Shown here one piece after another: positions 39,322-41,605 of a DNA stretch of 64,000 bases; positions within the stretch are counted from its first letter, which is position 1; every line of letters starts with the position of its first letter. Position numbers and translations under genes: made by a program. Under the pieces are notes generated by a model, which was given only the letters and a program-made list of their open reading frames with translations, was not told the origin of the DNA and did no database searches. The stretch lies in NCBI GenBank assembly GCA_014706385.1, contig JACGZH010000002.1:1922001-1986000 (forward strand), read 5' to 3'. The stretch comes from Phaffia rhodozyma. Its lineage: Eukaryota; Basidiomycota; Tremellomycetes; Cystofilobasidiales; Mrakiaceae.

Positions 39322-41605
39322 CTATTGGGCCTCTTCCAATAGTCGTTTTGTCCTCTCCAGAACCTACACAAAGGTGAAGAGAATAAAAGCAGCCGGAACT
39401 GAATCAACAAGAGAAGAATAGGACGATGGGCTGATAAGATGGCCAGCTGAACAGAAGGAAACAAACCTGATCGATTCTTGCTCGCTTCTCGACCTTGACA
39501 ACCAGCATCGAGTCTATCAAATCTTTGAATTCCTGAGAGTAGGGCGAGTCCCTCGGGTGTCGATAAGAGCCCGAAGCAACAGCCATTGAAATCGACCCTC
39601 CAGCCTGAGCAGGATCCTCAAAGGGAGAATAATTCTGAAATAAACAAATGATGGAATATCTAGTCAGGCACCGTTCCTAGGATGATATTGTTATAGAAAC
39701 GGGAGATAGAGAAAAATGACATACATAGGCTAGTGCAAACAGAGTGCAACCCAAACTCTGGAAGGTTGAGAAGAGATTACAAACACAATGAGAAGGGCAA
39801 AGGTAAGCGATGTAATCATCCACTCCCCTCTTACGATATTGGAGATAACATGCGTTCAAAACTTACCCATATATCGACCTTTTCATCCAGAGTCTGACCC
39901 GTCTTCGGCTCAAACAGTTCTGGTGCCCTGTAAGGCATGGATGAGTGTTCAGCAGCAACATCCTGTTCGTATGATCGTTCGCACAGAAGGGCAGTTTGCA
40001 TAAGACAGACTGATCATAGGTCTACTCGTTCGAGCTAAAACAGGAAAAAGCATGTCTGAAAGCTAAAAATACGGTCAACCGACCTGTTGAATCAATGCTT
40101 CCTGCCTGGTTCGAAGGTGAATTCGTGCTTTAACACACGATCCTAGGTCCATCAAGATGGGCGTCTTGCCATCGTCAGCTATCATGATGTTACTACATCA
40201 TCCAACACAGGTTTCATATACAAAGATACCAGAGGAAGAAACACATAAGCGATCATAGAGTACATCGTAATCAAGCACGGAGAAAGATGACTTACGCAGC
40301 TATATAGAGTAGATAGTTAGGGGAACATCATGTCAGTTGGATGGTACATCCAAATCTATTCTTGCTTTCTGGTTCTTGTTTTATAATTACTCACGCTTGA
40401 TATCTCTATGCGCATATGGAACCTCTTCATCATCTTCCGCATCATTCTCCTCAACAACTACCTCTCTGCCTTTTCCCTTCAGGTCGACCTTCTGAATGAG
40501 ATCCTGTTCTTCCTCTTCATCGCCCAAATCAAACACGATATCGTCCTTTCCCCCCCGTCCTTCGAGCAACATCCCTCCTTCCTCGTCGAACTCTAGCTCA
40601 GCCTGTGAGTCGGACACGAACTTAGCGGCAGGTGGATAGACCGAACCGTCCGAGCCAGACGCGGTTGGGGCATGCGCATGGGAAGGCTTGTAGTGGTGCA
40701 TGGATTGAACGGCGAGACAGGTTCCGTAGAAGAGACTCAGAAGCTGGCGTTCTGGTGGATGAGTCGGGGGGTTTGTGAGAAGAGAACGAGAGATCATATC
40801 TTGTAGGTTGCCTCGCTGATAGAGAAAAAAGGGAATGAAAGAATGATGCCACGCCAAGCGTTCAGTACCTCATTAGACTATGGCCTAATCTTCTTTACAC
40901 CCCAAGAATGAGAGCAGAGTAAAAAGCTAACAAACCTCATAGTATGGGAGAAAGACCCAGATGATTTTACCCTCTCCACTTTCATCTTGGACGACAGCCG
41001 AGTCAAGCACTGAATATGTTAAGAACATAAGATAACAAATGATACGAACCAACGGAAACATCAATGAAGGAGACCGTCAGTTTCCCTCGTTCCAGCCCCA
41101 GTCGGTGCTTTCCCGTCTGTTTATATCGAACTCAAAGTTAGGACGAACCAGTAATTATGTTGTTGCTTCTGAATCGTTTGTAAGCTTCAATCTCGGCCAA
41201 GGCAATCTTGACGACATCCCCACTCGGACATCTGATCTTTTTCAGAGCAAACGTCCGGCCTGTCGATTGGTCGTGAGCGAGATACACGAATGAGAAGCCG
41301 CCTTCACCGAGGAGTTTGACGATCTGAAACGTCCGACCATTGATCTTGAGTTCTGAGGATGGCTTGCATAGTACAGAGCATAGCGAAGTCGCAAAGTCTG
41401 TAGCATAGAACTAGGTGTGTATATGTGTGTTGTGAGAATGAGATGTCTGTTAGGGTTCGTATGGCGTTTAAGTCAGGAGAATGGGTCACGGAGCATTACC
41501 TTTGCCCGGTCCAGAAAGATTGCTCTGGAAGGGGACAGATGTGAGACTAAAGCTAGATACGATGATGAAAGATCGATCAAACAAAGCTTACAAGTTTTCA
41601 GACAT
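39322..41605 (-). CDS. ENV7: Ser/Thr kinase of the Env7 / STK16 (NAK) family
   Basis: Starts at ATG 41605 with a 14-nt coding exon (MSENL). Exon 3 gives a Cys pair (LCSVLCKPSSE) that could be palmitoylated as in this family, then the glycine loop LLGEGGFSFVYLAHD and FALKKIRCPSGD. The catalytic loop is HRDIKPANIMI; its P-A codons depend on a 4-nt exon at 40296-40299. Then come LMDLGS (DLG in place of DFG), ARIHLRTRQEAL, PYRAPELFE and SLGCTLFALAY. It ends LERTKRLLEEAQ at TAG 39322. An acidic insert (DIVFDLGDEEEEQDL) lies just before the HRD motif. Yeast Env7 is a vacuolar kinase; here location is inference. Head-to-head with GCN3. Confidence 0.85.
40296..40299 (-). other. Predicted 4-nt micro-exon (CTGC) in the Env7-type kinase
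   Basis: On the minus strand a CTAAC branch-like site and TATAG acceptor precede CTGC, which is followed directly by a GTAAGT donor. The exon before ends AAG C at a GTGAGT donor (40394) and the exon after begins T AAC (40192). Only with these four bases does the frame hold, giving K-P-A-N, the invariant HRDIKPAN of protein kinases. Flanking introns would be 40300-40394 and 40193-40295. Confidence 0.75.

What the first reader, a model, noticed from the sequence alone, without database searches (positions are those of the whole stretch)
40192..40395. A 4-nt micro-exon rebuilds the catalytic loop of the Env7-type kinase
Splicing directly from the HRDIK exon (ends AAG C) to the IMIADDG exon (starts T AAC) breaks the frame and destroys the kinase. 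A stand-alone CTGC at 40296-40299 with AG before and GTAAGT after restores the frame and gives K-P-A-N, the residues nearly every active kinase has here. Exons this short are extremely rare and hard for the spliceosome to define; skipping would yield a dead kinase, so it could act as a switch.
Basis: partly seen in the sequence, partly recalled or inferred. Interest (0 to 1): 0.75.

Follow-up and report, generated by a model that had tools for sequence, protein, structure and literature searches.

The report
Four-base exon missed in yeast kinase
In the astaxanthin-making yeast Phaffia rhodozyma a kinase gene very probably carries an exon of only four bases that supplies two residues of its active site; such tiny exons are already known in this yeast, but the public protein appears to have replaced this one by a wrong splice junction.

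Summary
On the minus strand, CTGC (40299-40296) lies between AG and GTAAGT. Joining exon 5, CTGC and exon 7 gives HRDIK-PA-NIM and a 415-aa Env7/STK16-type kinase; skipping CTGC gives KLTS-stop.

The window matches Phaffia rhodozyma. That model uses a GTAATT donor at 40390, four bases downstream of GTGAGT, keeps the length and reads KRDN. I judge it an annotation artefact. In 118 of 120 listed homologues the site is KPGN or KPAN; the two exceptions are the Phaffia and Mrakia models. GTAATT scores below all 137 GT donors of P450 introns with published lengths in this genome, while both sites flanking CTGC are ordinary. A read containing CTGC fits the public junction with only two mismatches.

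Extreme rarity fails here: a 4-bp exon is published for CYP5490A1 of this species and was located in this genome. No evidence supports a switch. Verdict: very likely a real constitutive micro-exon, a new member of a known kind, not RNA-verified here.

The parts
39322..41605 (-). Env7/STK16-type kinase gene, 11 coding exons, 415 aa
40395..40815 (-). Exon 5, ends HRDIK + first base of the Pro codon (phase 1)
40300..40394 (-). Intron A, 95 nt, GTGAGT...TATATAG; 57 of 137 training donors score as low or lower than its donor, 96 of 138 training acceptors as low or lower than its acceptor
40316..40320 (-). Branch-site-like CTAAC, 17 nt follow the branch A
   Evidence: consensus match only
40296..40299 (-). 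4-nt exon 6, CTGC: completes Pro (C|CT) and starts Ala (GC|T)
40193..40295 (-). Intron B, 103 nt, GTAAGT...GATGTAG; 77 of 137 training donors as low or lower than its donor; weak acceptor (10 of 138 as low or lower)
40084..40192 (-). Exon 7, starts with the last base of the Ala codon, then NIMIADDG
40385..40390 (-). Alternative donor GTAATT that yields the public protein P0001 (HRDIKRDN); 0 of 137 training GT donors score as low

Best explanation
Two ordinary introns (95 and 103 nt) lie 4 bases apart in the catalytic-loop coding sequence of the Env7/STK16 orthologue of Phaffia rhodozyma, leaving a constitutive 4-nt exon, CTGC. Shown: the sequence, the frame, site strength measured against introns of the same genome, and agreement of the product with the family. 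Inferred: because four bases cannot hold both splice-site complexes at once, the introns are recognised as introns (intron definition) and removed one after the other, giving AAG-CCTGCT-AAC = K-P-A-N. Skipping, or retention of either intron, gives a stop at once (KLTS*, KRE*, KPA*), so correct double splicing is the only route found to the family's KPxN. The public KRDN model is an annotation artefact: software that could not place a 4-nt exon used the only GT-AG single junction that fits a true read, with two mismatches.
For: HRD-IK is followed by KPGN in 113 and KPAN in 5 of the 120 listed homologues; the only others are the Phaffia (KRDN) and Mrakia (KRESAN) models (2827 passed the threshold, the 120 listed were examined). 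Training set: in stretches chosen by Pfam P450 matches, 12 of 13 P450 genes of PMC5516332 were fitted by their published exon and intron lengths, 148 introns, 139 of exactly the published length. On the 139 exact introns (137 GT donors, 138 AG acceptors): donor 40394, 57 of 137 as low or lower; donor 40295, 77 of 137; acceptor 40299, 96 of 138; GTAATT 40390, 0 of 137; 6 of 139 donors lack G at +5. Of the 14 GT dinucleotides in 40394-40200 only 40394 and 40295 score above the 4th percentile, and of the 7 AG acceptors in 40370-40192 only 40299 above the 8th. Intron lengths 95 and 103 fit a training median of 90; introns of 198 nt or more are 4 of 165 in the published table. Precedent in the species: 4-bp exon in CYP5490A1 and 6-bp exon in CYP5494A1, both genes located here. 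The rebuilt CYP5490A1 differs from the deposited protein P0121 at 4 of 542 residues, none at the tiny exon. Artefact route: a CTGC-containing read fits the 40390 junction with 2 mismatches, the only GT-AG placement among the 44 single-junction placements or so tested around the border. Mrakia's KRES-AN can be read as a shared exon-5 donor GTGAGT translated as R-E-S, followed by an exon starting CNGCNAAC (inference from protein letters).
Against: No RNA read was examined. The published CBS 6938 annotation, which I take to be the source of P0001 (one search does not say so), used RNA-Seq (TopHat2, Cufflinks, PASA) and gave high weight to transcript-mapped models (PMC4393869, passages), so KRDN may have read support. 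This same gene appears to use another donor without G at +5 (exon 2, GTAATG, 0 of 137 training donors as low), so a poor donor is not excluded. The exon 7 acceptor is weak (10 of 138 as low or lower), though both models use it. Intron B has no close branch-site match (CTTAT with 53 nt after its branch A), but such a match (CTNAY in -45..-8) is present in only 87 of 148 training introns. Training covers one gene family only, and 2 of the 148 fits (CYP51F1 introns 5 and 6) look misplaced. No DNA of a related fungus was at hand.
Confidence: 0.91

Rival explanations
1. The public model is right: exon 5 runs four bases further and joins 40391 to 40192 through a GTAATT donor and one 198-nt intron, giving HRDIKRDN; CTGC is intron sequence.
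For: It reproduces P0001 exactly; the published annotation used RNA-Seq; K-x-x-N with other residues occurs in active kinases (GAK HRDLKVEN, alignment); the gene uses one other donor without +5 G.
Against: 0 of 137 training GT donors score as low, none is GTAATT; only 4 of 165 published P450 introns are that long; KRDN in none of the other 119 listed homologues; leaves an ordinary-strength acceptor-donor pair that would restore KPAN unexplained.
Confidence: 0.05
2. Both junctions are used: a choice between two 4-base inserts of equal length (exon CTGC or exon extension GTGA) makes two kinase isoforms, KPAN and KRDN.
For: Both keep frame and length; carbon-source-dependent ratios of alternative and mature crtYB and crtI transcripts are reported in this yeast (PMC3184065, passages).
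Against: The GTAATT donor lies four bases from a far stronger GTGAGT; no RNA evidence; the simple artefact explains P0001.
Confidence: 0.03
3. CTGC is skipped on purpose under some condition as an on/off switch for the kinase. This is compatible with the micro-exon being real, so its odds overlap those of the best explanation.
For: Skipping would abolish the kinase C-lobe (268 aa ending KLTS).
Against: Both sites of the micro-exon are of ordinary strength; the skipped mRNA has a stop with four junctions downstream, 395 nt before the last, which predicts RNA decay rather than a stable isoform; nothing seen indicates regulation.
Confidence: 0.05
4. An assembly error or pseudogene produces the gap and CTGC is chance.
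For: Only one assembly of this locus was read.
Against: The public protein agrees at the other 413 of 415 residues; the reading frame is intact; chance is low (0 of 20,202 random stretches per source).
Confidence: 0.01

Closest known systems
4-bp exon 10 of CYP5490A1, Phaffia rhodozyma (PMC5516332, passages and section 9 with Table 1 read)
   Same: Same species, same size, internal, coding, between short introns (74 and 60 nt in the table); located here as CAAT in L030:4064-4067, a few residues after the AGHET motif
   Different: Published from cDNA against genomic sequence; another gene family
1-nt exon of CYP621A in Fusarium (PMC12940212, abstract and outline seen)
   Same: Ultra-short exon that completes a conserved protein motif (PKG) and is missed by annotation
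   Different: 1 nt, ascomycete, confirmed by SRA reads and 20 orthologues
1-nt exon of APC11 in Arabidopsis (PMC4674806, abstract and outline seen) and misannotated plant micro-exons (PMC8831610, passages)
   Same: Micro-exons missed by annotation, with wrong protein models as the result
   Different: Plants; backed by RNA-seq and RT-PCR
Exons as small as 1 bp in Cryptococcus neoformans (PMC3990503, passage)
   Same: Same class (Tremellomycetes; placement of Cryptococcus recalled), intron-dense genome
   Different: Genome-wide statement, other order
Xlr2 micro-exon switch in Trichoderma virens (PMC11121469, abstract and passages)
   Same: Fungal micro-exon that decides whether a key domain is made
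   Different: Two isoforms and sugar-dependent inclusion are reported there; no such evidence here

Membership tests
Env7/STK16 branch of NAK kinases | Sequence closest to STK16 among solved kinases | tested here: met
   2buj E 5.3e-44, next GAK 2.5e-29 (run with the 410-aa draft)
Env7/STK16 branch of NAK kinases | HRDxKPxN catalytic loop | tested here: met
   HRDIKPAN with the micro-exon; not met in the public KRDN model
Env7/STK16 branch of NAK kinases | N-terminal cysteines for palmitoylation | tested here: inconclusive
   Cysteines at 24 and 28 (SLCSVLCKP) before the kinase domain; acylation not testable
Constitutive micro-exon | Flanked by canonical splice sites of ordinary strength | tested here: met
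   Acceptor: 96 of 138, donor: 77 of 137 training sites as low or lower
Constitutive micro-exon | Needed for frame and conserved product | tested here: met
   KLTS* without, KPAN with; the KRDN route also keeps the frame
Constitutive micro-exon | Present in mature RNA | not testable with these tools
   No reads held
Constitutive micro-exon | Same exon in related species | not testable with these tools
   The genome has no relatives in the genome search and no fungal DNA collection is offered; only Mrakia protein letters
Regulated micro-exon switch | Condition-dependent inclusion with two functional products | not testable with these tools
   Skipped product would be truncated before the C-lobe

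The most novel reading that the evidence does not exclude
The gene uses two mutually exclusive 4-base inserts of equal length, the exon CTGC and the exon extension GTGA, to make two full-length kinases that differ only in two catalytic-loop residues (KPAN or KRDN).
Probability: 0.03. Interest if true: 0.7.

Novelty: new member of a known kind. Interest (0 to 1): 0.32.

Why it matters
If confirmed, it is a clear case of a public gene model writing two wrong residues into a catalytic loop without any sign of trouble: the wrong model has the right length and frame. In this intron-dense order (7.5 introns per gene reported for P. rhodozyma, PMC5103461, passage) exons under 10 bp may number in the hundreds (my extrapolation from 2 of 152 internal exons of one gene family), so many protein models may carry similar silent errors. 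It also offers a compact test of how fungal spliceosomes handle two splice sites four bases apart.

Tried and rejected
Rejected: exon 7 starting earlier, since of the 7 AG acceptors listed in 40370-40192 only 40299 scores above the 8th percentile. Rejected: my first N-terminus (FNLSGPGK), replaced by LAIFLDRAKFYATDF after comparison with P0001 and P0002; some searches were run with the first version (410 aa). Corrected: one search used rounded thresholds and so left out the CTGC cassette itself; one search repeats the count with exact ones. Corrected: my first motif pattern matched only 53 of 120; the widened one matched 120 of 120. Corrected: the first splice-site scoring used 148 fitted introns, 9 of them not of the published length; two (CYP51F1 introns 5 and 6, off by 27 and 15 nt, one with an unpublished GC donor) look misplaced. 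One search repeats it on the 139 exact ones with the same outcome; the decoy count and the branch-site count still include the 9. Not fitted: CYP5139P1; the fit stopped after 10 of 18 exons in L027 and 9 of 18 in L028, and the gene was left out. Led nowhere: tRNA scan and composition profile. Literature searches for 'microexon' or 'micro-exon' with 'Phaffia' and for 'micro-exon' with 'Xanthophyllomyces' gave 0 papers (one open-access library, not proof of absence from print). The kinase family search served to learn genome size and contig; its rows were not analysed. Not done: structure prediction, the third protein search, any collection scan.

Full report
What the sequence shows. The gene lies on the minus strand, 41605-39322, in a 19.77-Mb genome of 15 contigs. 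The eleven coding exons are 41605-41592, 41524-41500, 41410-41149, 41009-40936, 40815-40395, 40299-40296, 40192-40084, 39962-39867, 39757-39725, 39634-39467 and 39363-39322; joined, they give 1248 nt and 415 aa without an internal stop. Exon 5 ends AAG C, exon 6 is CTGC, exon 7 starts T AAC; the product reads HRDIKPANIMIADDG. Without exon 6 the frame breaks and the protein ends KLTS after 268 residues, with four exon junctions downstream of the stop. Retaining intron A gives KRE-stop and retaining intron B gives KPA-stop.

What it is. The best database match is a Phaffia rhodozyma protein, 99% identical over 97% of the first-draft query (P0001); the species belongs to Cystofilobasidiales, Tremellomycetes. 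Homologues are named ENV7, NAK kinase or serine/threonine kinase 16; human STK16 is the best solved relative (2buj). Searches used a 410-aa draft whose N-terminus was wrong; the corrected model differs from P0001 at 2 of 415 residues.

The rival junction. P0001 reads HRDIKRDN, not KPAN. Extending exon 5 by four bases to the GTAATT donor at 40390 and joining to 40192 reproduces P0001 letter for letter. The Mrakia frigida model reads HRDIKRESAN.

Which is right. (a) Family: of the 120 listed homologues 113 read KPGN, 5 KPAN, 1 KRDN (Phaffia) and 1 KRESAN (Mrakia) (2827 proteins passed the threshold, the best 120 were listed and examined). (b) Splice sites: PMC5516332 gives exon and intron sizes of 13 P450 genes of this species, determined from genomic and cDNA sequences (section 9 read). 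In stretches chosen by Pfam P450 matches 12 of the 13 genes could be fitted by these sizes with open frames; 139 of 148 introns have exactly the published length. On those 139 (137 GT donors, 138 AG acceptors) 57 of 137 donors score as low as or lower than GTGAGT at 40394, 77 of 137 for GTAAGT at 40295, 96 of 138 acceptors for the AG before CTGC, and 0 of 137 for GTAATT at 40390. None of the 148 donors is GTAATT, and 7 of 148 (6 of the exact 139) lack G at +5. (c) Length: 95 and 103 nt are typical (median 90); 198 nt or more occurs in 4 of 165 published P450 introns. (d) Chance: 0 of 20,202 random stretches for each of two Markov sources gave a 4-base KP[AG]N cassette with sites this good, and the 148 fitted introns (14,571 nt) contain no cassette of 1-30 bases of that quality. 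In the window, both strands, there are 6 such cassettes, CTGC being the only 4-base one.

Why an RNA-Seq-aided annotation could be wrong. The published CBS 6938 annotation used GeneMark-ES, Augustus, TopHat2, Cufflinks, PASA, GMAP and EVM (PMC4393869, passages). That P0001 comes from it is my assumption; one search names no study. A true read contains AAGC-CTGC-TAAC. Forced onto a single GT-AG junction it fits donor 40390 with two mismatches (CTGC against GTGA), the only GT-AG placement among those tested. That this happened is inference; it predicts two fixed mismatches in the reads.

Results against this reading. No RNA was seen. Exon 2 of this same gene ends at GTAATG, as low as none of the 137 training donors, so poor donors seem to be used. 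The exon 7 acceptor is weak (10 of 138 as low or lower), though both models need it. Intron B has no close branch-site match, but neither do 61 of 148 training introns (87 have one). Training rests on one gene family and includes two fits that look misplaced in the 148 set. Other residues at the two positions are compatible with kinase activity in general: GAK (NAK family, recalled) has HRDLKVEN in the alignment.

Rarity and novelty. Of 152 internal exons in the 13 published genes two are under 10 bp, 4 and 6. The 4-bp exon of CYP5490A1 was located as CAAT in L030:4064-4067, a few residues after the AGHET motif; its rebuilt protein differs from the deposited one (P0121) at 4 of 542 residues, none at the tiny exon. 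P. rhodozyma averages 7.5 introns per gene, 111-nt introns and 199-nt exons (PMC5103461, passage). Exons down to 1 bp are stated for C. neoformans (PMC3990503, passage), and 1-nt exons are reported in Fusarium (PMC12940212, abstract) and Arabidopsis (PMC4674806, abstract). So the kind is known. This instance, in the catalytic loop of an Env7 kinase and hidden by an equal-length other model, I did not find described in the searches I ran (one open-access library, listings and passages only).

Mechanism. Two splice sites four bases apart cannot both be occupied at once (general knowledge), so the introns are most likely removed one after the other under intron definition. Nothing here says which goes first. 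The Mrakia letters R-E-S suggest that the exon 5 donor GTGAGT is shared and that the next exon there begins CNGCNAAC, so intron A may be the older and intron B a later gain that cut CTGC off; this rests on protein letters only.

Switch. Skipping would yield a truncated, probably decayed product. This yeast does show carbon-source-dependent ratios of alternative transcripts for crtYB and crtI (PMC3184065, passages), so regulation is not excluded, but nothing seen at this locus points to it.

Changes at the fact check. Site scores now rest on the 139 exact introns, the cysteine positions are corrected to 24 and 28, the source of P0001 is marked as assumed, and confidence in the best explanation went from 0.92 to 0.91 because two training fits proved doubtful and P0001's source is not shown.

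Noticed in passing
L027:1792-5764 and L028:2894-6999 (contig C1 near 1,533,000 and 1,442,000): Two copies, in opposite orientation about 90 kb apart, of a roughly 4-kb stretch with a CYP5139P1-like P450 gene (three blocks, 95.2 to 99.5% identical); the published P450 table lists one such gene. Duplication, strain difference or assembly effect.
   Followed up: partly
window 41499-41411 (minus strand): The donor of exon 2 is GTAATG, without G at +5 and below all 137 training donors, yet the junction AK|FY agrees with P0001 and with the Mrakia protein.
   Followed up: partly
window 41148-41010 (minus strand): Intron 3, the longest of the gene (139 nt), contains an open stretch in one frame (QTGKHRLGLERGKLTVSFIDVSVG) and a second TGGTTCGT donor-like copy; the public protein leaves it out whole.
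   Followed up: no
P0002 (Mrakia frigida protein): The model reads HRDIKRESAN; possibly the same kind of annotation error, with the intron start GTGAGT translated as part of R-E-S.
   Followed up: partly
L030:4064-4067: The published 4-bp exon of CYP5490A1, CAAT, located in this genome a few residues after the AGHET motif of the P450.
   Followed up: yes
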